Origin: Paramacrobiotus metropolitanus
Taxonomy: Eukaryota > Tardigrada > Eutardigrada > Parachela > Macrobiotidae
Length of the DNA stretch: 64,000 nt
Direction of reading: 5' to 3'
NCBI RefSeq assembly: GCF_019649055.1
Contig: NW_026570270.1
Coordinates: forward strand, 310,001 to 374,000
A program made the translations under genes and the position numbers. A model generated the notes under the pieces. That model saw only the letters and a program-made list of their open reading frames with translations. It ran no database searches and was not told where the DNA came from. Shown one piece after another: positions 4,201-57,071 of this stretch (positions are counted from its first letter, which is position 1; the number at the start of each line of letters is the position of its first letter).

Positions 4201-6910
4201 TGTATCGTAAAAAAACGGAAAAGGCGCAACAAGAACCTACCCTAGTACTGAGATAAAGCACTGTCCAGAAACCGTTGATGATTTTAATCAATACAGAAAC
4301 CGCAAAAAAAGTTCACATCCATACAGAAAAAAATAACACAAATTAGTAATAGCACAGAAATTCAAATCCATGTACAGCACACAAGAAAAATAATCTAAAG
4401 TTTCAATTAAGGGCATTCTACTCTCTACAGCAATCAGAAATAAGGATATGATCGTATCCACATGTGCCGCTTTACTACGAAGACAAAGGTACTCGTACTG
4501 TACAGAAAGGGTCATAAACCGTAGATACAAAACGCTCCATGTACGAAATTGCATGATATAATGTACGCACGTTACAGTATCGAATACACGCGCGCATAAA
4601 TTTCGAGATAGTGCTAATTTTCAAAAACGGTCCAACAAAGGAAATCAAGCATGTCTTGTCGGTACTTTTCATACCGAATCTTTAGTATATTTTAGTGTTA
4701 TTAATTTTCTTCATTTTTGGTTTTACCTGCTGCTACGGCGGCAGGAGTAGAGTTAGGAGGAGGCGGAGCCGCCCGCACAGGAGGCGGCGGAGGTGGCAGC
4801 GGTTCCGGTACGGGTGGTGGGTGCGATGACGTCAGGGAATTCTGCCGGTTTCTAATGGCCATCAGCACCGACAACGGCGAAATGCTGCTGTGACTGCGCG
4901 TCTGGTTGGGCGGACGATTAATGCTGCTGCTATCTGTAAAATGCATCAATAAAACGTTGCCACCTCGCACAATCAGCTAGGGCTTGATAAAATTTACGGA
5001 TAAATTTCCCGTAAAAGGCGACAGTTAAGAATTTATGTGTCTGTTGGTCCGACTGGTCTAATTACAGCAGGCAGTTCCGTTCGAACGGAATTTATGGGAC
5101 TAACCGAGCAGCTGCAGCGCCACCGTCGTCCCGTACACGTCGAATACCGCCCACAAGGGAACACTCGTGTCCACGTTTTCAAATGCCGTTCCTGCAATAT
5201 TATCACTCTTAAAAACATTATATTCGCGCAAGTGCACAATAAAAGAAACCGGAGTCTGTCAGTTTTATACAGTTCGCGGAAATACCTCAAAGGATGCGTT
5301 TTTCAATCGAAACTGCACAATATCTTCACAGAACGAAATAACTTACAAAAAAGCAGAAATTATTAAAACTTTATCATTACAGTTATAAAATATGATCGAA
5401 CTTGTTCTGTTATAAAAGGATAGAGAAGCAGATATGTATACCAAATTTCTCAGCAAACGCAGTAATTTACAAATAATTTATTGTCAGGAATTTACCAAGC
5501 ATTTTTCTATGTTTGATATTATTTATTCTTATTTAAAACCGAAGTACGAGTATTAATAATGAATATTTAATACGTAACTAAATATTCTGAAATATTTAAT
5601 GGCAACAACGACAAATACATAAGTAACGTAAAATGTTTATTAATTTTTTTCATTCGATAAGCGTGCGGAAAGGTATCTAGGAAAATAAGCATTTAAGGAA
5701 CAAGAACAGGGAAATAAATCAAAATTGCTAAGGAAACTTCAAAAGAGCACCACTAAAACGTCGCTTACAGTTGCTAACCTTTATTGACACCGTTAACGCC
5801 ATAAACAATCGTGGCTCCGTCAGGCAGGCACTGGAAATGAATAATCCGCTCACTGGTATCCCCGGGCGCCGGACGGCACACTTCCGGCAGGGGACGTCCC
5901 CAGAAACCCGGCCGGCTGGTCAGGTCCGGGCAGAGATAGAGGGCCTGGGCCAGATCGACACCCTGCGGGTCGTGGGTGGTCAGGCCGATGCGCAGCGAGC
6001 CGCTCCACTGGGCCACCTTGGAGGCATCGCCGCCGCAGCGGGCGGATGCCGGGGGAACGGGCAGCGCCAGCTGTTCGCTGATACGGAAACACACGCATTC
6101 GCCTTTCTCGATGGGACGGTTGGAGAAAACAATACCTGCTCATCAAAATAAGAAATTTTATCAACTATACCGCATTACGGCAGAAGAATTTAGCAAACAA
6201 AACAGTTAACGAATTTAAAACTGGAAGCAGAAACTCGTAATTAACAAGGAATGCATGTATTTAACGCAAATATGTATCACAATTATCTTTCTTCTTCAAA
6301 CAATAATAACCGTTCGACTTTAACAGCAGTTTCCTGTTCCAAGAAGCAATTATTATATCGAAATATCATGGTTTACAAAAAAAGTCTCCATTTTCATTTA
6401 TTAACCGTAATTACTAGTACATCTTTTACACCCGCAAGGCATATTCGATTACATCAAGCTAACAATCTTCGCACAACGCCAACGGAAACATAAAAAATCT
6501 AGACAAAATCCTCACGGTTACGACTGATTTCGTAGCTATACTGTATACACACGAGTAGTAAAATCAAACAACACTAGGACATAAGTACAGGAGAAAAATA
6601 CAGCGAACTGATTTATCCTCGTACCTTTGCAATAACTGCGAACGCGCCTGGCCGCACTCCCATCCGGCGAAATCTGCACGTGCTCGCCGTGATTGGAATG
6701 AAAGCGCAGGGTGCCGACACTGGACGGTCGATCGCCGTGGCCCAGCGAGAATGATTTGGCCAGGGAGGGATCGGAGGAAGAGGAGGAGGCCGACTTGGGG
6801 CTCTTCATGCCCGCCGTGGCCCGCCCGCTCTTCGGCTCGTTTGACGGCAACATGGACAGATCGGAGCTCTGTGACAGCAGTCCCAGACCGTTGCTTGACC
6901 GATTGCCCAT
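1231..6910 (-). CDS. neur: Neuralized-family E3 ubiquitin ligase (NHR1-NHR2-RING), complete, 8 exons
   Basis: RING ubiquitin ligase; neuralized proteins are known to ubiquitinate Notch ligands (Delta/Serrate) at the membrane and drive their endocytosis. Coding exons on the minus strand are 6625-6910, 5779-6135, 5105-5191, 4727-4933, 3508-3899, 2736-2934, 1764-2203 and 1231-1332. All join at GT-AG sites in matching phase and give 689 residues. The start MGNRSS has Gly2 and Ser6, an N-myristoylation-type signal as in vertebrate NEURL1. NHR1 covers about residues 68-243 (FHSNHGEHVQI, GIVFSNRP, SGSLRIGLTTHDP, LWAVFDVYGTT). A Pro-rich linker follows. NHR2 covers about 356-509 (GRNVLLSEEG, FCNGYVF, DNLLDRPEYWVVAKDV, FFDLYGTT). 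A second Pro/Ser/Thr linker leads to the C-terminal C3HC4 RING at 637-684 (CIVC, CGH, MCYPC, CPIC), ending IKDIIRTYRG as in the family. Intron 7 (1333-1763) is extremely AT-rich. No break is seen. Any non-coding 5' exon is not located. Confidence 0.95.
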
Positions 6911-10784: not shown

Positions 10785-12047
10785 CTAATTCATTACGCTA
10801 GTAACTATGAAATTCATAATACGCTCCCGTTTATCTTGTCCATCTTCCGTTTCGTCCATGTGCGGCTCCGCATCACTGTTGTCATCGTTGTTCTTGTCTT
10901 CTTCTTGCTCCCAGTCTTCATCAACCTCGTCTGCATTTTTTACGCATAAATTGTGCAATATACAACAACATCTGAACCAATAAACAGCTCTAGTATGACT
11001 TTCGCCATCTGCTATGTAAGTTCTTAAGCCACGCAGACACTGAAATCGAGCTTTTACGTTACCGATAGTATGCTCAATTGTAACACGAGCAGAACAGTGG
11101 AGAAACTGAAATGTACTACGAAACGGTGTGGTAACGTTGTTTTTCCGAAAAGGTGGCATAATGGTGGTAGTGCACGAATAGGCGCTATCGGCTAACAGGT
11201 ACTCTTGTCCTTGGAAAAATTCCGTGGCTTTTGTTCCCAGCGGTGAATTTTTGAAGACTCTTGCGTCATGCACAGAACCAGGATATCCACAAGATGCGAA
11301 TAAAATCAACCGGTCAGAGTCACAAACCAACATAGCGGCTAATGCATAACGGTGTTTCCGGTTGTAATAATCTTCGCCATTAAGTGATGGTTTGTATTCT
11401 AAACCTATGTCGGTGCCATCCACAAAACCCAAACAGTGAGGAAAATGAAATTTGTTCTTTATCTTGTCCTTAATTAAGGCTTTCTCAGTCTGATTTGGCT
11501 ATCGCACTACATCGTTTTCAATGGACAATAGAGCTACGATAACTCTACGAGTGTAATTTTCCACTGCACCTTCTGAAATCCCGAATCGTCGAGCAACTTT
11601 TCCCACTGCACCGCCATTCCCAAACGTTCCGAATCGATGCAGAGCGACAGTTAACTGGTCAGCAACGGATGCTTTGGCATGCATAGATTTATTCACAAAA
11701 ATGGGATGATCACAAATTTTGCCAAGCACGATGTTAAATGTTGACCTTGACATCCGGCATTCTTGTCGGAATCTGTCATCGTCCAGGCGGGGCAGAATAA
11801 GTCGAAGAAAATCCGTACTTTTCGGCACTGTTAAACGGCGATTTAAATAACGAGTAACGTGCAGGTAACCTCGAATCATTAGAAAAAGAGACTCATCTTC
11901 TTCCTTTCTACGTGCAGAAGAATGCAGCAATAACTCTTGTTCATCCGATAAAAATCGCAGTGATGAATTTGTTCGCGAGGAATTTAATAAAATTAGCTTC
12001 TCGACAAGTTCTATTGCTAATTTTCTTTTACTTTTGCGCGGGGCCAT
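10785..12047 (-). pseudogene. Harbinger DDE transposase (DDE_Tnp_4), broken by one in-frame amber codon
   Basis: The transposase of the 8505-12330 element. The frame is continuous from the ATG at 12047 (MAPRKSKRK) to the stop at 10785, 421 codons, except for a single TAG at 11499-11501. The N-terminal part has a helix-turn-helix region (RRFGISEGAVENYTRRVI). The C-terminal part has the Harbinger nuclease: GFVDGTDIGL (first Asp), FASCGYPGSVHDARVF (second Asp region), YLLADSAYS (third), and VTIEHTIGNVKARFQ (the Glu). The TAG lies where relatives have a conserved Trp-Pro pair just before the nuclease domain (VVR-stop-PNQTEKALIK), consistent with TGG to TAG. Read-through, an untested small intron, or true inactivation are possible; inactivation is most likely. 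Confidence 0.9.
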
Positions 12048-12805: not shown

Positions 12806-14039
12806 TCTGTGTAGTACGCGTATTCTTAGCCGGTCCTGTCTGCCAGTCTCAACAACCTGTGGTCGAGTTGTAATGAATTATGCAAACAAACTGCACCGTC
12901 GAATTTGCAAGCCAGGCGGCCAAAAATCGGCTCAGGCGGTATTCCGGTACGTAACAGACTGAATCCGAGCCGCAAAATAACTACTTCTACTGATTTATAA
13001 TTTCTGTACGAGTACGCTTAGCGTTTATAAAGTCGCACTTGTAAGTCCTAGAGTAGTACTTCTAAATTTATTTGTGTTTCGGTTTATTTGCCATCTGAAA
13101 CAAAACGCCGTGAGCAAGTGTAGGATTACAGAGAATTTCTCTACGAAAGCAAATTTGTAACGTACTCCCGTAGGCGGTTGCCAATAAAAAATTTTCAATA
13201 AACACGTCATGTACTGTATATACAAATGCACTGCGAAATACTGACTGGTACGTTTTCAGCATAGTATTTTAAATACATGTAAAAAACTGTCTCCGTAAGC
13301 CAAATAAGCAAAAGCGGTATAGTATTTAGTGTTGACGAGTCGTTAAGTCAGAAACATTGCCAGTATAATAATACTCACCACTGAGCGTTTGTTCTTGCTT
13401 CGCTGCATCCGAAGTCACGTAAACAACCATCCTTGGGATCGTAGTAAAATCAGATAATACAATTTGCAAGTAAGAAACTCCCTTGCATGTAAATTGGGAT
13501 TGGATTTAAACTATTTCAGTTTAAAATCAATGATAGCGTTTGACGGGTTGAGAATAATGTACAGTTTAATCAGTTACACGAGGCAGTTCTTCGAAATGGA
13601 TGCTGACACTAGTAAAGCTTAACTCGTAGCGAACATTATGCAATTCGATGAAATTAGCGCGTTAATTTTCGGGCGGTCTGTGGTAATAGAGTCGCACATA
13701 CAGTGTTGCTGATCCGGGACCGAGCAAATAGAGCCGGGCAGAGGCGCGGTCTACAGCGTGCAAATGGCACTTACGTCCGTGAATTAAGCCCACTGTTAGC
13801 ACGGGTGATTAAAAATTTGAAGAAGCATCTATTACTTTTTAAAACTTTTATCAGTTTGAATCCTTACGTCTTACCGATTACAGCGGTGTGTTCAGTTTGT
13901 AAATCGGATCGCAAAGTTTTGCGATATCGCTTCCCGAAGAATATGTCGGTGCAGTTTGTTTACACAATTCATTACAACTCGACCACAGGTTGTTGAGACT
14001 GGCAGACAGGACCGGCTAAGAATACGCGTACTACACAGA
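12806..14039. mobile_element. Non-autonomous DNA element with ~92-bp inverted ends
   Basis: Arms 12806-12897 and 13948-14039 are inverted copies with about two mismatches (terminal motif TCTGTGTAGTACGCGTATTC). The 1050-bp interior has no recognisable transposase. I could not define a convincing target-site duplication because the right flank is interrupted by a second element at 14041. Confidence 0.75.
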
Positions 14040-14042
14040 TTA

Positions 14043-14573
14043 GTCTCTGTTCGGGGCACATACGGTAGGTTTTCCGGTAACGATAACGGTATGACTCATC
14101 CCAAATTTACCGTTTTTCTGCCTGTACCGTATCGTTCTGCTCGCTAGGATAACGATAGATAGCGTTCGTATCGTTGGGCATCTCCGGTAGAATCTTGAAA
14201 GCAATGGAATTAGTGGATTACCGTTTTCTCAAAAGATATAACTACTTTGAACATCGCTCTATTTACTAAAATATTTCAACAAACAAAAGAAAGAAAAATA
14301 ATATTTAAAAACAATTTATTTTGTGAGGGACTAAACGCACCGGAAGTCGTCAGTTCACTCAAACTGCCTCCCCACAAGCGGCTGGTCACGCTCTTGCAAA
14401 TTCACTTCACATTTTTAATTTAGTGAGACCGGACCGAGCCCGAGCCGAACTCTGTATCGAGCGTTATCGTTGTGCTTAGCGAACACACAAACTTCTAACG
14501 GTGGTGAAAACCATGACGGTAGCCTACCGTTATGGTTACCGGAAAACCTACCGTGTGTGCCCCGAACAGAGAC
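14043..14573. mobile_element. TA-flanked MITE with ~50-bp inverted ends
   Basis: The ends read GTCTCTGTTCGGGGCACA (14043 onward) and its inverted copy ending at 14573. TA dinucleotides flank both sides (14041-14042 and 14574-14575), as in Tc1/mariner-type insertion. The interior is non-coding and itself rich in ACGGT/ACCGT palindromes. It abuts the 12806-14039 element. Confidence 0.8.
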
Positions 14574-15051
14574 TATTAGATTATTATCGCCCCACAGTCG
14601 CGATATACGGTCCGGTATACGATACGGTGGGCCACCGTATCGTGACCGTACCGTTGATAAGGTAGAGTGATCGCAACGCGCAGACGGTAAACGATACGGT
14701 CCAATCCTGCCTCTGACACGAAACATGATGCGGTTCAAATCAGTCTTCAGGCTCTGGCTGATGGTAGCAATCGTTCAATTGAAAACTCGATGAAAACTAA
14801 AATTCTAAACTATTTTTTGATACCAAAACATCCAGATTTAACAGCCCATGAATCTTTCTACGAGCATTCGAATTTTAACACAGGCGCCTATGGAGTTTAA
14901 ATGACAACTCGCGCGGAGTACTCCAACGGCTCCGTAAGCTTGGCATACTAAATTCAGATGGCTACAGAATCGTTCGTTTTTAGATATACTGCACTCGCTT
15001 GGTATCAAAAAACTCCTTAGAAATTTATCTTTCTTCTAATATCATTTTCTG

Positions 15052-18000
15052 ATGAATCAAGAGCAACTAAAATCTATCAGAACAATTTTAAAGTTCCGTG
15101 ATTTGGCAGCTGCAAACGTTATGCTTCAAGCCACTGCCACTGAGGGTGGTTGCTATATCGCAGACGTCAACGGTAGGCATTACGATATCTCAGCCTTCTA
15201 CCGTCAAAAGTATTTATGCTTTAACCGTTTAAATTTTCTTTTGAAAAATGAAGAATAGATCAGAAGAAACGATTTGATGTTTAAATGCATACAGACGTTG
15301 GAATCAAGCTGGTGCGAAAACAGCGATCTGCTTTAACGGCGCACAGATATATGCAACGTAAATCGAACGTGACGTAAGGCGAACGTTCAGTTTAATATGT
15401 TTAGAAAAGGATGTATGCCCCTCGTACGAGGAGGCGAAGCGGAATATTGAGGAGAACAAATGCTCTTTGGATGTGTTTAAGCCGGTGGACGGTGGCCGCC
15501 TGAGCAACCTTCTGAAATGTTCTGTTGACGGGGGCGCGATTACTTTTGATGGGATTCTGCCAGATGGCCGGCATAAACTGACTGCAGCTGGAAAACTGGG
15601 GGAATTAGATTCCTTTCGCGAGTATCTACTGTAAGTGAGGAAATACGAGGGCGCAATCTTCCTCGGGAATGTTTTTTAACTGCTTAAATCTAGAAATGAA
15701 TGACATTTACTCGAACTTAATTATTCTGGCTATGACCAATAATTTTTTCATGGAAATTACCATATTTAAAGCAAATAGATTGCAGGAATAAATGGTGATA
15801 AGCATTGCCAAATAATTTCAGAAACAAAATTATTGAGAATTTTTGAATGAGCTGTTTCAATTTGCTGCCGCTCCTTTGTACTTGTGATTTCGTTTTACTT
15901 TACAGCAACAGAATTATCTTTTGTGTGATTTTATTAATTTATCTAGGACGCTTAATTTAACCTACGCGAAGTACGGATTGCATTTCGGCGCTGAAGAGAC
16001 AATAATTGTCAACGAAGCTGGCACCGGCGAGGATGCCCTGAAGGACCGGGAACGTTATCAGCGCGAGAAGGAAGCTATTGCCCGATCTCACGAAAAGGAT
16101 TTGGAGAAGACTTCCGGTGGCCACCGGAACGAACCAGTTAAAATTAGTTTTATTGAAAACGTAATGAAAAGATGAATAATTTTGGCTAATTCTATGTGCT
16201 TATTTATTTAAATAACTTCCTGCTTATTTTCTGAACTTGCTTGATTTCTAAATGGTTTCATATGTTTAGGAATGGCTAGCAGAGACAGCGAAGAATAATC
16301 CTGTCAGCGAAGGTACAGGCGTACATTTAAGGTGGCTTTTTTTTATTTTTTTAACGAATTTTGAGTGGAAGTTGACACTACAAGAACATTAATTAACAAC
16401 TAAAGATTTTTATTTGATTATAATTCCCATAAACTCGTAGATGCTCGGCTAATAATAATTAATACACGTACCATAATTATTTTATTTTTTTATTTACGAG
16501 TTAGTTCTAATTTGGTACTCATATAGTTGTATGCAGTAATAATAACCAGGAAAGTGCACCGCTGTTGGCTTGCACTAAAAGACCGAAGCGAAGCGGGGTA
16601 GTGCATTTAATAAACTGTTTGCTGATGGTGAGTTTGTTTCAAACGGTTTTAAAATGCAGTTTTTATATTTAAATAATATTTTCTTTTTTATTTAATATTT
16701 TTGGGTGTGTTCTTCCATACTTTATTTATTTGAAATTATTGAGGCGTGACCGACGTGACCGACAAACTCCTGTTTTCTTAAACATAGAGGACCTTCGCTT
16801 CGCTTCGGCCGATAATAATTAAATAAAAATACGAATAAGTATTAGTAACAATTATATTAATTTAAATAAAGGATAATAACGGTCTATTTATGCAGGTGTC
16901 GCAAGTGTTTGTGATCGCGCAAGTGCGCATGCAAACGTTGGATCGCAAATTGGAGCATTTGCAGAGTCAGGTACTTCCGGACTAATGTGATTGTCTAGCA
17001 CGCAGACCTAAATACGAGACAGAGACAAGATAGATCTGGTGGGAAAATTCGAAAAAAAACCGACAAAGCGGTGGCTAAATAAATTTTTCGCTGGTGCTAA
17101 AATGTGTTGAAATGGGATTTCGTGGGCTTTTTGCGCAAAAGAACAGCTTAAGTGTTGGTCAGTGCTTAGCGACCTAGTTAATCTTTATAGCAGACAAATG
17201 CAAATTGCAAAGTAATATTGCAAAGGTCACGTTGGCTTCTTTGAAAAACAAAGGAGTCGACGGATTTAGCAAAAGCTTTGAATGGCAATCAGCCCAGCAT
17301 AATTTTTTCGGACTTTAGAATAAGCGGAATGTTTTAACAAATTTTAAATTGGAGGAAGATAAGGATGGTCGTTGGGTCGAACCGCAGTTTTAAGTTAGAT
17401 CTCACTGTATTTTAAGTCACACTCGCAGCGACGCGATCCATAGTGAAAAAATCCATAACACATACAGGGATAATAAAGAAATTGAATACTTAATTAGTAA
17501 TTTGCTGATTTGTGACCTACTCGTAGAGACCTTCAAGTGGCCACCCATGTTAAGTCAATGGACGACATACCTTCAAGTGGCCAGGCTGCAGTTATTTGGC
17601 CCCAGACCCGATTTTCTTCCTGTTTTTGGTATAGCATGTTCAGCTCAACATGCTCTTTACAGAGTCCCTGAAAATTTTAAAATCGGTTGAACCGTTTTTT
17701 AGGTATTTACGTTGTAAAAAATCAGTGACGAAACGCGTAAGCCACGCCACGAGAGCCACTAAACTACATGTGCGGTTGATAAGTGAAATACGTTGGCGTT
17801 AGTGTAGTGGCTCTCGTGGCGTGGCTTACGCGTTTCGTCACTGATTTTTTACAACGTAAATACCTAAAAAACGGTTCAACCGATTTTAAAATTTTCAGGT
17901 ACACTGTAAAGAGCAAGTTGAGCTGAACATGCTATACCAAAAAACAGGAAGAAAATCGGGTCTGGGGCCAAATAACTGCAGCCTGGCCACTTGAAGGTAT

Positions 18001-19096
18001 GTCGTCCATTGACCTAACATAGGTGGCCACTTGAAGGTCTCTACGAGTAGAGTAGAGTGAATTTTAAGAGAAACTGCCCGAACGTGGCGCGGCGTCTCTG
18101 TAATTATGTTACTAATATAATATTTATGCGTTTATACAGATTGTAACGCGGCCCCTGCTAGCGTAACTGTCGGCTCGGTAACCAGAATTGTTGTGGAAGC
18201 AACTGACATGCGAGAGAATGACCCGAAGAAGAAGGGACTTAACCAGCACGAAATAGAAGCTTCCGGTCGATCTGACGACATGGAGCTCGAGAAGAAGACC
18301 GATTCCTACCGAAAAGACGCCAAGGTATGTGTTTCAAATTTCCCGTTTTTAAATAGGCTTTAATTACTTACTAATTCGGGAAGTAAGTTTTTTAATGAAG
18401 ACGTAAATAATTCTGACTGATTTGTGGGAAGTGTTGCACTTATTTAAAAAGTTATGAGTTTTCTAAACATGTTAGTTTGATTTGTGCAGGAAGAGGCTGA
18501 GCTGATCCGCAAGGAACTGGAGAAGCAGGATGAGCGTCCCAAGAAAATTTTTGGCAAGGCCATAGGGCGCCATCCGCTGGAGCAGGAGACCAAGTACGCC
18601 AAGAAGGAGCAGCAACGTGAACACCACCTGACCGAGGAATCTTTGGACAAGAGCCGCGTGGCCACCAACATCGACGCGTCCATGGACGCTTTTGCGTAAG
18701 AAATGTCGACTTAATTTATTTTCTCATTTTTTATATAATTTTTCTTTGAAGTTTATTTTTTCGCTTTAAAAAAAAGTTCTGGTAAAAAAATTAATTTTCC
18801 GATTTGTCAACCTTTTAGTTATTGCTGGCATTAATCAGTATCGATCACATACAATTTGATTCATTTATTACTTAATCAAAGTAATTAGACAGTTAAATAA
18901 TAATCATAAAATAATAATTATTTTCAGTTATATTTATCGTAGAAAATCTCGCATTTGAGCTCAGTTTTTAATTAAATTATTCTACAGGAGCGGCAGTGCA
19001 CGGACTGTGTCAAAACCTGTTAATACTTCCGAGGTTCGCGAGAAGGAGAAGAAATCCCTGTTCGATAAGTTTAAGAGTACCTTTGGGCGTCGCTGA
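15052..19096 (+). CDS. CAHS-like (cytoplasmic abundant heat-soluble) protein with unusual N-terminal exons
   Basis: CAHS proteins are tardigrade-specific disordered/coiled-coil proteins that form fibrous gels and protect cells during drying. Exons that chain in phase: about 15052-15170 (uncertain end), about 15405-15630, 15947-16160, 16270-16312, 16896-16970, 18140-18324, 18490-18695, 18988-19096 (TGA). Exon 15947-16160 carries ALKDRERYQREKEAIARSHE, the classic CAHS helix. Exons 18140-18324 and 18490-18695 carry MELEKKTDSYRKDAK, then AELIRKELEKQ, KYAKKEQQREHHL and ESLDKSRVATNI. The end, EKEKKSLFDKFKSTFGRR, is a CAHS-type basic tail. The helix block is thus present twice, the first copy with a degenerate end (LEKTSGGHRNE). 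The first two exons (GRLSNLLKCSVDGGAITFDG, KLTAAGKLGELDSFREY) do not resemble CAHS N-termini I know and may belong to another gene. The last three exons are the safest part. A polyadenylation-like AATAAA is at about 19424. Confidence 0.72.
16545..16720. repeat. Dispersed repeat, copy A (in a CAHS-like intron)
   Basis: Shares TGCACCGCTG.TGGCTTGC, AAAGACCGAAG and TTTTTGG.TGTGTTC with 58821-58975. It contains GAAGCGAAGC, with an inverted counterpart, CTTCGCTTCGCTTCGG, just downstream at about 16794. Confidence 0.75.
17517..18050. repeat. Giant foldback (two ~244-bp arms) within a CAHS-like intron
   Basis: 17517-17760 and 17806-18050 are near-perfect inverted copies around a 45-nt loop. The outer ends read CTACTCGTAGAGACC / GGTCTCTACGAGTAG. 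Mismatches are few (for example CATGTTAAGTCA versus TGACCTAACATA). No coding frame or target duplication is clear. It looks like a foldback-type element or a recent inverted duplication, and would form a ~244-bp double-stranded RNA stem if the intron is transcribed. Confidence 0.93.
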
Positions 19097-20080
19097 GCCA
19101 TTCGGTGGAGGCTATTTGTATTCCTACGCAGCTGGTTCGCTCCTGCGCGTCACACATTCTTCCCCTTGGTTTCCTTTATTAATTTAATCTCACTAATTGC
19201 ACACCCTAGGGACGTCGCGATGTTTACTACATATTTCTCAATGTTGCTGGAGGATTTTATTTGGCTACTTTGGTGTTTGTACCGGAAGGTGGTTTTGCAT
19301 CAAACTTGTGGAATACTAATATTTATATTAATTTTTTGTATCATTAATCAGTCCGGTTTCTTGCATTCTGCCATTTTGAGTCTTTCTTATTAATGTGATC
19401 AATTCATTTCGGTGCGAAATTTTAATAAATTCATTGAATCATAGCGATTCATACTTCTGGAAGTTGTTTTTCTTAAGAAAGCTTTAGCTGAATGGTAATA
19501 AGCAGCGCCGCTGCAGATTCAAATATAAATCCGTGAAGTATCACAAGGAGATTATATAAGGTTCTCAGTAACAGTATTACTGGAGATCGCTATTGCATAT
19601 TCGCATGAGATCTCTAGCTCAGTATATCTGCGTCATCATAATGATTCGAAAAACGAATGCTTATGGAGCGTACTAAATGTACCTCGACACTTACAAACCT
19701 AAAGCCATTAACAAATCCCGGGCCGAAAATGACAATGCATTAGCAAAATGACTAAGGAAAAACTGCCGAAACCGTTACTGTTGCTGGCCAATGTATATAT
19801 AAGTTAACACCGAAAGACGTTGCCGTATCTTAGTTGCATAGTTTTTTACAGACCGTGACCTTTTTATAAAATAACTTTTTACAAATTTGCTTGTCATAAA
19901 CTTTTCTGGTCTTATCAGCATAAAACTGCCGGAATAGAGCATGGTTCGTATAATTTTTTAATCAAGCACGCTGAACAGGAAACTAATTTCATGTAAGTAT
20001 ATGTTTAAAACTCTATGATTTTTACTTAGTAGTCGCGGTATTTTTTTACATTCGTCAGATGCTCACCAACTGTGCTGAAT
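19097..20080. other. 3' flank of the CAHS-like gene; no further gene seen
   Basis: Contains the likely 3' UTR and a polyadenylation-type signal near 19424. The short plus-strand frames at 18996-19187 and 19166-19393 are in frames unrelated to the exon and have no features. Confidence 0.45.
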
Positions 20081-50731: not shown

Positions 50732-51749
50732 TTTTAGTGGCGTTAGCAATTGTATTTTCAGTCCAGTTCTTTAAATAATACACATTAGCATAGATTAGAT
50801 TCCCGGCACACCGGGCGCGCGCAGCCCTTCCCGCCGCGACACCACCCCGATCAGCTCGTGATGCCCGTCCTTGTCCTTAGCCACTAACGGGCCACCGCTG
50901 TCGCCTTGACAGAAATCTTCACCACCTTCCGGGGATCCACCACAAATCTACAAATTAACGGTAGTCGGTTATTTTGCGCTGGATATACCAGTATAATCAG
51001 AATCCAGCAGCAGGTTCATACCATAGCTTCAGGGAAGGTGAACCCTTCCAACTGTTTAACGCACGTAGTCCGGTCGTATGAATCAATGGCCATTTGTTCC
51101 AGTTTGTCCGAGCCGGCGCCCAAAGTAGGAATGGCGAAATTATTGTCTGTTCGTCCTGAAGATAAATCCACTTTTTATTATTTTCAGCAGCTCTGGATAA
51201 CCTTTTTCGCAGCTTTCGCAAGCTTGAAACCCCGGTATACATAATATATTAAGTTTTTTTAACAGCGCAAGATGACCTTTATTAACTTGTAATCAAGATG
51301 CGGAATTACAATTTAATACAGTAATTCGAAAAAACTGAAAACCGTATCAGCGTCCTTTGTAATAAAATAGTAGTTAAAGTCTGACCTTGGTTTTCCACCA
51401 ACTGACCCCATGCAGCCACGAATGTCGCTTGTTTTCCGTCGCGTTCTTTGTCAATATTGGCGACGTTGGCCAAATCCGTGGACGGATGCGTCGGCAGACA
51501 GACAGGTTGAACACGCGACGTGAACTTTACAGGTTGGGCTAATTCCCGCAATGTCACATCGTTGTTGGTGGTATCCTTGGGATTGTCGTATTCCGGATGA
51601 TGGAATCCACGGGAAATGGGCAACAAACGTTGCTCGGTGTTTTCGAGTCGCCGACGGCGGTGCCTCCCGTGGCTGGCACCGGAAGAGGCGGAGCTTTGGG
51701 ATTAACTGCCGGGTTGTTGCTGATTGGCTTCCACCCCATTCTGTCAATG
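50732..51749 (-). pseudogene. Trypsin-like protease pseudogene, internally deleted copy of the 55.0-57.1 kb gene
   Basis: Matches the intact paralogue exon by exon. The last exon (about 50788-50947) keeps [20 protein letters not shown] but has SWGKGC changed to SRREGL by compensating shifts and then a premature TAA at GVPGI. The fourth exon lies at about 51010-51160. The third (about 51387-51625) keeps LLPISRGFHHPEYDNPKDT and NND but loses everything upstream, including the catalytic His. That exon is fused directly to the pro-region linker ([20 protein letters not shown], to 51745), so an intron and parts of two exons are deleted. The copy ends abruptly at 51749, where receptor sequence begins. 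Confidence 0.9.
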
Positions 51750-55045: not shown

Positions 55046-57071
55046 TCATGTCGATTTGGTGGCGTTGGCAATAGTACTTTCGATCCAGTTCTTGAGGTAG
55101 AACACATTCGAATAGATTCCCGGCACACCGGGTTGCGCGCAGCCCTTCCCCCACGACACCACCCCGATCAGCTCGTGATGCCCATCTTTGTCCTTAGCCA
55201 CTAACGGGCCACCGCTGTCACCTTGACAGGAATCTTTCCCGCCTTCCGGAAATCCACCACAAATCTGAAAATTCACGGCACCCGGTTATTTTGGGTCAGA
55301 TAATATATGAACCTATATAGGTAATCAGAACTGCCGGTAAGCAACAAAGGTTATACCATAGCTTCAGTGAAGGTGAACCCCTCCAACTGTTTAACGCACG
55401 TAGCCCGGTCGTATAAACCGATCGCCACTTGCTCTAATTTATCCGAGCCGGCGCCCAAGATAGGAACGGCGAAATTATTGTCGGTTCTTCCTGTTATAAG
55501 ATAAATTCCACAAGTATTATTGTTTTTACTAACACCTGATGATATTTTTCGCGGTTTTGTCATCAAGCTTGAAACTGCGATATACTATGTAAAAGTATAT
55601 TTAATAACACTAGATGACCTTTACTGACTTTGTGATTCAGTTCCAAAATTACAGTTTAATAATCATTGAGAAAACCTAAGAAATCGTATCATTGACTTCT
55701 GTATGATAGTAAAGTCTGACCTTGGTTTTCCACCAGATGGCCCCATCCAGCAACGAACGCCACTTTCTTCCCGTCGCGTTCTTTGTCGATATTGGCGGCG
55801 TTGACCACATCCGTGGACGGATGCGTCGGTAGGCAGATAGGTTGAATACGCGACGTGAACTTGACCGGTTGCGCTAATTCCAGCAATGCCACGTCGTTGT
55901 TTGTGGTGTCCTTGGGATTGTCGTAGTCCGGATGGTGGAAGACCCGAGAGATGGGCAGTAGCAGCTCCGGCTGGGTGAGCACCTGCTTTAAATCGGTAAT
56001 CCCGACCACCGCTTTAATGTGGGTGGTGATGAAGTCGTCGGGGTGGTTGTCCACGCAGTGACCGGCAGTCACGATCCAGCGGTCGCTAATCTGCAGTGCA
56101 ATTTTGTCAATTAGGCAGTGCAATGGTATTTTATTAAAGGAAAGTGCCTTATTAAGCATAAATCACGGTGTGTTCATCTTGAAAACTATACGAATGCCTA
56201 AGGCTTAATTAAATATATACGTTAATGATTATTTTATTTGTGCAAATACTTAGGCACAAATTGTGTGGGCGTTATTACAATAAGAAGCATTAAAACCTCA
56301 AAATCACAATAAGAAATTCCGCATTAAAAATGTAATGGTTTTTTTTAATCTTACTTGTTCTGCAGTAAATCAAGAACTTCCAGGAAAGAGAGGAAATATG
56401 TACGTAAGGATAGTGTTCAGGCGGACTCTATTGCCTCTACACTACGATTTTAAGTAATCAGAAACAAACTCGCTGACAAACCGGCGTGTTCAACACAAGT
56501 ACCGAGTATGTGCAGAAAATTAACGCAGCGTATGCCGTAGATAAATGTTTTTATAATATGTATGAAGAATAGCCTTAAACTCACATATCGCTTAAACATT
56601 GCTACCTGTACATACCAGACTGGCACCACAAAATTGGTAGACGGGCGGCATGTACTCCGGCCGGAACTGGATGAGCGCCACAATCCATGGCCAGCTTTCT
56701 TCCTGCGCCTCCACACCGCCGACGATCCTGGAACCGGTGGCCCACAGAGCGTCCGGACTGTTCGTCGGCCGACCACATAGTGATGTTGGTAACACTTTGG
56801 TCGGTGTATTGGAATCGCCGACGGCGGTGCCTCCCGTGGCTGGGGCCGGAAGAGGCGGAGCTTTGGGATTAATGGCCGGGTTGTTGCTGATTGGCTTCCA
56901 CCATTCTGTCAGTGCATATCAATTCATTATTTCATAATGACAATAAAAATAAAACAAGGTTTGAATGAACAGGAAAAAAATATTTATTTTTACAATAATT
57001 AAGCTACGTTGATACTTACGAGCTTGAACAGCAGCCGCAAAGGATATGAAAATGCACAGTGATTTAATCAT
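55046..57071 (-). CDS. Trypsin-like serine protease (S1A) with pro-region, intact, 5 exons
   Basis: Secreted protease predicted to cleave after Arg/Lys. Exons: 57020-57071, 56616-56905, 55721-56090, 55357-55490, 55046-55264. All phases match, giving 354 residues. Signal peptide [18 protein letters not shown] Pro/Thr-rich pro-region ([20 protein letters not shown]) with CGRPTNSPD leads to the activation site [10 protein letters not shown]; the pro-region Cys probably pairs with the catalytic domain. The triad is present: His in WIVTAGHC, Asp in NNDVALLEL, Ser in CQGDSGGPL. Asp six residues before that Ser (KDSCQGDS) gives trypsin specificity. The substrate is unknown; gut or hemolymph roles are possible. 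It is paralogous to 57575-59545 and the source type of the pseudogene at 50732. Confidence 0.95.

What the first reader, a model, noticed from the sequence alone, without database searches (positions are those of the whole stretch)
15052..19096. CAHS-like desiccation-protein gene with a duplicated helix block and non-CAHS N-terminal exons
Seen: two separate CAHS-type helix blocks (15947-16160 and 18140-18695) and a CAHS-type basic tail chain in phase with each other. They also chain with upstream exons (15405-15630 and possibly 15052-15170) encoding LSNLLKCSVDGGAITFDG and KLTAAGKLGELDSFREY, which do not look like CAHS. Known: CAHS proteins normally have short genes with a compact variable N-terminus. 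Inference: either a new CAHS architecture made by exon duplication and fusion, or a degenerating locus beside an unrelated gene.
Basis: partly seen in the sequence, partly recalled or inferred. Interest (0 to 1): 0.75.

Follow-up and report, generated by a model that had tools for sequence, protein, structure and literature searches.

The report
Decaying CAHS-derived copy amid transposons
A tardigrade drying-protection (CAHS) gene was copied here long ago; its second half is still readable but has lost a core family motif, an extra helix exon lies upstream of it, and part of the supposed new front end is repeat DNA, so it looks more like a drifting gene copy than a new kind of protein.

Summary
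The two CAHS-type helix blocks and basic tail are real. Exons 18140-18324, 18490-18695, 18988-19096 and the 3'UTR match exons 4-6 of an intact six-exon CAHS gene on contig C9; 15947-16160 is a second exon-4 copy. All joins can be made in frame, but one new fusion gene is not supported. 'Exon' 15052-15172 lies in a dispersed repeat, 99% identical to a copy on C7. Exon 15405-15630 had no other genome match and stays unassigned. Exons 16270-16312 and 16896-16970 show no CAHS signal. The extra exon 4 is nearer C9 (88% in its core) than its downstream neighbour (68%).

The 3' half keeps its frame (no stop; 5 of 5 coding indels in threes). But nearly all protein change lies on this branch (omega 0.5-0.7, 1 not rejected; other CAHS 0.03-0.06), and motif QH.RD[IV].FR, present at 12 of 14 CAHS loci, is missing here and at C15. 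Best reading: a 5'-broken, relaxed CAHS paralogue in repeat-rich DNA. Boldest reading not excluded: core-less CAHS copies modulate CAHS filaments. No expression data.

The parts
14041..14575 (.). Foldback (inverted-repeat) element adjoining the repeat that contains 'exon A'
   Evidence: arms 14041-14091/14525-14575, 51 nt, 96% complementary
14572..15207 (+).
   Evidence: 99.06% identical over 636 bp to a copy on C7; 40 matches listed (54 candidates, 40 scored), of which 1 self and 33 on this part of the query
15052..15172 (+). 'Exon A': ATG then phase-1 GT donor, inside the repeat; not a CAHS exon
   Evidence: own-frame synonymous codon score ranks 4th of 6 frames
15405..15630 (+). Exon B: open exon with TTTAG acceptor and GTAAGT donor; no other match in this genome; identity unknown
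   Evidence: only self; no Pfam; no PDB; own frame best of 6; structure model mean pLDDT 52
15659..15889 (.). Dispersed repeat inside the proposed B-C intron
   Evidence: six other copies at 83-84% on query 1010-1240
15947..16160 (+). Exon C: extra copy of CAHS exon 4 (helix block 1); its frame stays open to a TGA ending at 16175
16270..16312 (+). Proposed exon D (position of CAHS exon 3); no sequence support
   Evidence: not among the 12 best hits of the exon-3 profile; phases fit
16538..17520 (.). Repeats in the proposed introns: 16538-16849 (eight other copies listed), 17024-17180 and 17211-17520 (two other copies each)
   Evidence: query 633-950, 1125-1281, 1312-1621; 486 candidates, 40 scored
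16896..16970 (+). Proposed exon E; no CAHS support, removable without frame change
17517..18050 (.). Foldback element with 97-98% complementary arms, many copies genome-wide
18140..18324 (+). Exon F: CAHS exon 4 (first part of helix block 2), same length as in C9 (185 nt)
18490..18695 (+). Exon G: CAHS exon 5, core motif lost, 21 nt shorter than C9 in three in-frame deletions
18988..19096 (+). Exon H: CAHS exon 6, basic tail and TGA stop at the C9 stop position
19126..19327 (+). 3'UTR homologous to the C9 CAHS 3'UTR (73%)

Best explanation
The locus is an old partial duplicate of a CAHS gene whose closest relative here is an intact six-exon gene on contig C9. Shown: exons 4-6 and the 3'UTR correspond, with introns at the same places (F, G, H). 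The frame and splice signals survive, amino-acid constraint is weak or gone, and the conserved motif QH.RD[IV].FR is destroyed. No credible counterpart of C9 exons 1-3 was found in the window. Much of the DNA upstream is dispersed repeats, one of which supplies 'exon A'. An extra exon-4 copy (C), less diverged from C9 than F is, lies about 2 kb upstream of F, in phase with an unassigned exon B. Inferred: the copy lost its original 5' end, is at most a weakly constrained gene and is drifting towards loss. Any protein made from F-G-H would be partly helical and would not assemble like CAHS, because prolines, glycines and deletions break the coiled-coil core.
For: Homology: F, G, H pair with C9 exons 4, 5, 6 at 0.69, 0.75 and 0.68 DNA identity; 3'UTR 0.72; introns 4 and 5 0.58 and 0.51; the alignable end of intron 3 0.64 (gene model). 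Relaxation: in the protein tree the window branch is 0.77 and the C9 branch 0.000003, pair support 99. Branch omega is 0.53, 0.48 and 0.65 with 3, 4 and 8 sequences; omega 1 costs 2dL 0.46, 0.66, 0.14; background 0.04-0.06; an earlier 8-sequence run with wider bounds gave 0.71 and background 0.03. Core motif absent at C50 and C15, present at 12 of 14 loci scanned. No credible exon 1-3 match. Repeats. Core identity C-C9 0.877, F-C9 0.691, C-F 0.679.
Against: The frame has been kept: in 1000 neutral simulations to the observed 76 amino-acid differences of 165, 2.6% had no stop (mean 3.8 stops). All 5 coding indels are multiples of three, against 10 of 25 in the noncoding stretches compared (one-sided Fisher p 0.021). 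Identities cluster along the protein (p 0.019; longest run p 0.064). Pairwise dN 0.28 against dS 0.90 looks constrained, although the branch models place the constraint on C9. Omega is poorly determined: fixed values from 0.2 to 4 all stay within 2dL of 3.2. Exon B has the best codon score of six frames and a good donor, so a real 5' end using B is possible. Synonymous counts do not clearly place C with C9: 4.0 of 16.0 (C-C9), 6.0 of 16.0 (C-F), 7.5 of 15.3 (F-C9).
Confidence: 0.62

Rival explanations
1. One working fusion gene: exons A to H are spliced into a 392-residue protein with two helix blocks and a new N-terminus.
For: All joins are in phase and the 1179-nt frame is open; splice ends look consensus-like (consensus recalled).
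Against: A lies in a repeat 99% identical to another copy, so probably a recent arrival; D and E have no CAHS signal; F-G shows no clear amino-acid constraint.
Confidence: 0.06
2. C and F are alternative exon 4s of one gene: B-C-G-H and x-F-G-H isoforms share the tail. C can join G directly in the phase of the normal exon 4/5 junction.
For: GT sites in phase 0 end C, and G begins in phase 0 behind the conserved acceptor; C and F keep different halves of the exon (C keeps KDRERYQREKEAIARSHEK, F keeps LEKKTDSYRK).
Against: The ancestral donor of C is changed (CGGAACGAACCAGTTAAA against CGGAAAGAAGCCGAG|GTATGC in C9); C and F need different upstream phases; no transcript evidence.
Confidence: 0.1
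3. A functional CAHS variant without the core motif, kept to modulate (cap or block) assembly of normal CAHS filaments.
For: Frame kept while the core is lost at two loci by different lesions: C50 by substitutions and a 12-nt deletion, C15 by a 42-nt in-frame deletion; C15 coding indels 3 of 3 in threes against 2 of 17 noncoding (p 0.009).
Against: C15 has dN 0.15 against dS 0.14 to C9, as expected without constraint; absence of stops in C15 is not surprising (0.31 of simulations); C50 omega is not shown to be below 1.
Confidence: 0.12
4. A plain pseudogene, not translated.
For: Branch omega compatible with 1, core motif lost, no CAHS 5' exons found.
Against: No stop and no frameshift across F-G-H.
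Confidence: 0.1

Closest known systems
CAHS gene on contig C9 of the same genome (L032; 1783.4-1786.0 kb, minus strand)
   Same: Exons 4-6, their intron positions and phases, stop position and 3'UTR
   Different: C9 has exons 1-3, the core motif and almost no protein change on its branch; only one exon 4 was seen in the 9.9 kb read
CAHS partial copy on contig C15 (L018 with L042)
   Same: Exons 5-6 and 3'UTR of the C9 type; core motif lost in frame; a CAHS exon fragment with a GT donor lies about 3.4 kb upstream
   Different: Much closer to C9 (dS 0.14 against 0.90); its upstream block joins an exon-5 start to an exon-4 end
Cytosolic-abundant heat soluble protein 94063 (PDB 9rkp_A)
   Same: Helical core matched by F-G (E 4.1e-11) and weakly by C (E 0.013)
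   Different: Around the core motif the match is poor and gapped

Membership tests
CAHS | Sequence homology to the CAHS helical region | tested here: met
CAHS | Conserved C-terminal core (CR1/CR2 in PMC9592077, passages read: in all 40 CAHS compared except CR2 in one). I take QH.RD[IV].FR as part of it; that mapping is my inference, the passages print no sequence | tested here: not met
   motif at 12 of 14 loci, absent in the window (13001-20000) and at C15; for the paper
CAHS | CAHS N-terminal exons, including the YTHTE..APL and GLA.E stretch before exon 4 | tested here: not met
   Searches (C9 exons 1-3, best E 0.23-0.43; profile): no credible match in 64 kb; weak similarity could be missed
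CAHS | Exon 4-6 organisation as in the nearest CAHS gene | tested here: met
CAHS | Amino-acid constraint as in other CAHS | tested here: not met
   omega 0.48-0.65 against 0.04-0.06 background; 0.1 rejected, interval wide
CAHS | Heat solubility, abundance, stress-dependent filament or gel formation | not testable with these tools
   needs RNA, protein and cell assays

The most novel reading that the evidence does not exclude
This tardigrade lineage keeps producing CAHS copies by exon-block shuffling that lose the assembly core in frame (C50 and C15, by different lesions) yet stay open. They may be retained as short-lived, non-assembling CAHS partners that cap or soften filaments, with C50 adding a new N-terminal exon (B) and a second exon 4 (C).
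Probability: 0.1. Interest if true: 0.65.

Novelty: new variant of a known kind. Interest (0 to 1): 0.3.

Why it matters
CAHS genes are central to tardigrade drying tolerance, and their copy number is used in evolutionary arguments. This locus warns that an in-frame exon chain can mix CAHS exons with repeat DNA, and that gene counts may include core-less copies. If core-less copies proved to be expressed, they would be a natural test of which parts of CAHS are needed for assembly.

Tried and rejected
Recent exon duplication F to C: not supported, since C is nearer to C9 than to F in its core (0.877 against 0.679). Synonymous counts are small (4.0 of 16.0 sites C-C9, 6.0 of 16.0 C-F, 7.5 of 15.3 F-C9), so neither a later arrival of C nor an early duplication inside the locus is proved or excluded.

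Purifying selection from pairwise dN/dS (0.28/0.90): rejected as proof, because branch models put the constraint on C9.

Capture of block C by a transposon: a search with 15900-16200 found only self and C9 (2 candidates, both scored). Not supported.

Identity of exon B: genome, Pfam and PDB (with a longer query gave one match at E 0.081, taken as chance) gave nothing; the single-sequence model has mean pLDDT 52, so I ran no fold search.

Homology of D and E to CAHS exon 3 and the start of exon 4: neither is among the 12 best hits of the profiles.

Codon score as a coding test: weak. Exon F, a homologous CAHS exon, does not score best in its own frame (-0.141 against -0.094 in a reverse frame), so B's rank is only a hint.

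Literature: search listings for CAHS with exon/intron, pseudogene (one paper, not read) and duplicated helices (listing only). I saw no report of core-less or exon-shuffled CAHS copies in these listings or in the passages read; most subscription papers are not held.

Full report
SETTING. The window is C50:310001-374000 of a genome of 169.8 Mb in 533 contigs. A published Paramacrobiotus sp. TYO assembly has 170.48 Mb in 684 scaffolds (PMC8277472, passages read); it was later called P. metropolitanus (PMC9592077, passages read). I infer that this is that species or a near relative. A CAHS protein search of this genome gave 19 exon-level matches (22 candidates, all scored) at 14 places; a DNA search added a fifteenth at C73:137142, which I did not examine. 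Published counts are 16 for P. metropolitanus (PMC13006486, passages read) and 16 for Paramacrobiotus, of which that paper says 15 may represent only 7 homologues (PMC10799326, passages read).

THE OBSERVATION. The CAHS-type blocks are real. A profile from exon-4 regions of eight other CAHS genes, run over 3555 open segments of the window, ranks 15888-16172 (per-domain E 6.9e-14) and 18121-18360 (1.9e-8) first; the next is 5.6. The exon chain A 15052-15172, B 15405-15630, C 15947-16160, D 16270-16312, E 16896-16970, F 18140-18324, G 18490-18695, H 18988-19096 is one open frame of 1179 nt; leaving out E also keeps the frame, as does joining A straight to F. In-phase joining is therefore weak evidence by itself.

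THE RELATIVE ON C9. The best relative is an intact CAHS gene on C9 with six exons of 141, 141, 82, 185, 227 and 118 nt, coding for 297 residues. F, G and H correspond to its exons 4, 5 and 6. DNA identity is 0.69, 0.75 and 0.68; 3'UTR 0.72, intron 4 0.58, intron 5 0.51, alignable end of intron 3 0.64. In another tardigrade CAHS splice sites are not conserved among family members (PMC3429414, passages read), so shared intron places point to close kinship. A third copy of exons 5-6 and the 3'UTR, on C15, is closer to C9 (exon 5 0.84, exon 6 0.90, 3'UTR 0.92).

THE N-TERMINAL EXONS. 'Exon A' lies in a repeat running from 14572 to 15207, 99.06% identical over 636 bp to a copy on C7. Of 40 matches listed for window 14650-15950 (54 candidates, 40 scored), one is self, 33 lie on this repeat and six on a second repeat at 15659-15889. 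At protein level exon A matches 25 other places at E 0.001 or better. Its own-frame synonymous codon score ranks fourth of six frames. Exon B differs: its only genome match is itself, it has no Pfam or PDB match, the best codon score of six frames (2083 training codons; a weak test, since exon F does not score best in its own frame), acceptor TTTAG and donor GTAAGT. It has no ATG in frame, so it needs an exon upstream. Exons 1, 2 and 3 of the C9 gene have no credible match in the window (best E 0.23, 0.43, 0.41), and a profile of the exon-3 region finds none. D and E are not among the twelve best hits of their profiles.

THE EXTRA EXON C. In the 27-codon core, C and C9 are 0.877 identical, F and C9 0.691, C and F 0.679. 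C is therefore not a copy of F as it is now. Synonymous differences are 4.0 of 16.0 sites (C-C9), 6.0 of 16.0 (C-F) and 7.5 of 15.3 (F-C9): they hint that C is the younger relative of C9 but cannot exclude an early duplication in this locus. C keeps the first half of the exon and F the second half. The space between C and F is largely repeats, including a foldback element at 17517-18050 with many genome copies.

CONSTRAINT. Against decay: no stop in F-G-H (neutral chance 0.026 in 1000 simulations); 5 of 5 coding indels in threes against 10 of 25 noncoding (p 0.021); identities clustered (p 0.019; longest run of 11, p 0.064). For decay: in the tree the window branch is 0.77 substitutions per site and C9 0.000003. 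Branch omega is 0.53, 0.48 and 0.65 in three data sets over 129 codons of F-G, with 1 not rejected and 0.1 rejected (2dL 10.1, 8.9, 10.9); background is 0.04-0.06. A run with wider bounds gave 0.71 and background 0.03. Several branches are saturated, so omega is rough. C15 shows dN 0.15 and dS 0.14 to C9, with no stop (neutral chance 0.31) and 3 of 3 coding indels in threes against 2 of 17 noncoding (p 0.009).

THE CORE. QH.RD[IV].FR occurs at 12 of 14 CAHS loci scanned and is missing in the window (13001-20000) and at C15. In G the stretch reads KQDERPKKIFGKAIGRHPLEQETKYAKKE, with prolines, glycines and two deletions where C9 has [35 protein letters not shown]. PMC9592077 (passages read) reports that CR1 and CR2 are in all 40 CAHS compared except CR2 in one, and that leucine-to-proline changes there impair filament formation. 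I infer, without test, that an F-G-H protein would not form CAHS filaments.

VERDICT. A CAHS-derived paralogue with a lost or unknown 5' end, an open but relaxed 3' half and an additional exon-4 copy, in repeat-rich DNA. Descent from CAHS is clear; it fails the core test, so I file it as a derived variant and not as a full member. A chimaera with exon B, alternative use of C and F, and a modulator role remain possible and need RNA.

Noticed in passing
window 19126-19327; L032 and L018 3'UTRs: The 3'UTR of this CAHS subgroup is about as conserved as the exons or more so (0.72 window-C9, 0.92 C15-C9) while introns 4-5 are 0.51-0.68, which suggests a regulatory element. Among the loci held it matched only these three genes.
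   Followed up: partly
L018 + L042 (C15, gene-strand position 5562-5675 of the joined 10808 bp): A shuffled CAHS block: the start of exon 5 (88% over 34 bp) fused to the end of exon 4 (79% over 48 bp), open, with a GTATGT donor, about 3.4 kb upstream of exon 5.
   Followed up: partly
window 10788-11333, minus strand: DDE_Tnp_4 transposase ORF (Pfam E 6.8e-26); a PIF/Harbinger type is recalled, not tested.
   Followed up: partly
window 17517-18050: Foldback element with 97-98% complementary arms and many other copies or half-copies at 76-97% across the genome (40 of 486 candidates scored).
   Followed up: partly
window 50852-50899 and 55169-55216, minus strand: Two identical 16-residue peptides ([16 protein letters not shown]), seen in a tblastn listing, suggest a local duplicate pair; likeness to serine proteases is recalled, not tested.
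   Followed up: no
C18:1574765-1575317 (L017, L019): A CAHS gene that seems to have an intron inside the conserved helix region.
   Followed up: no
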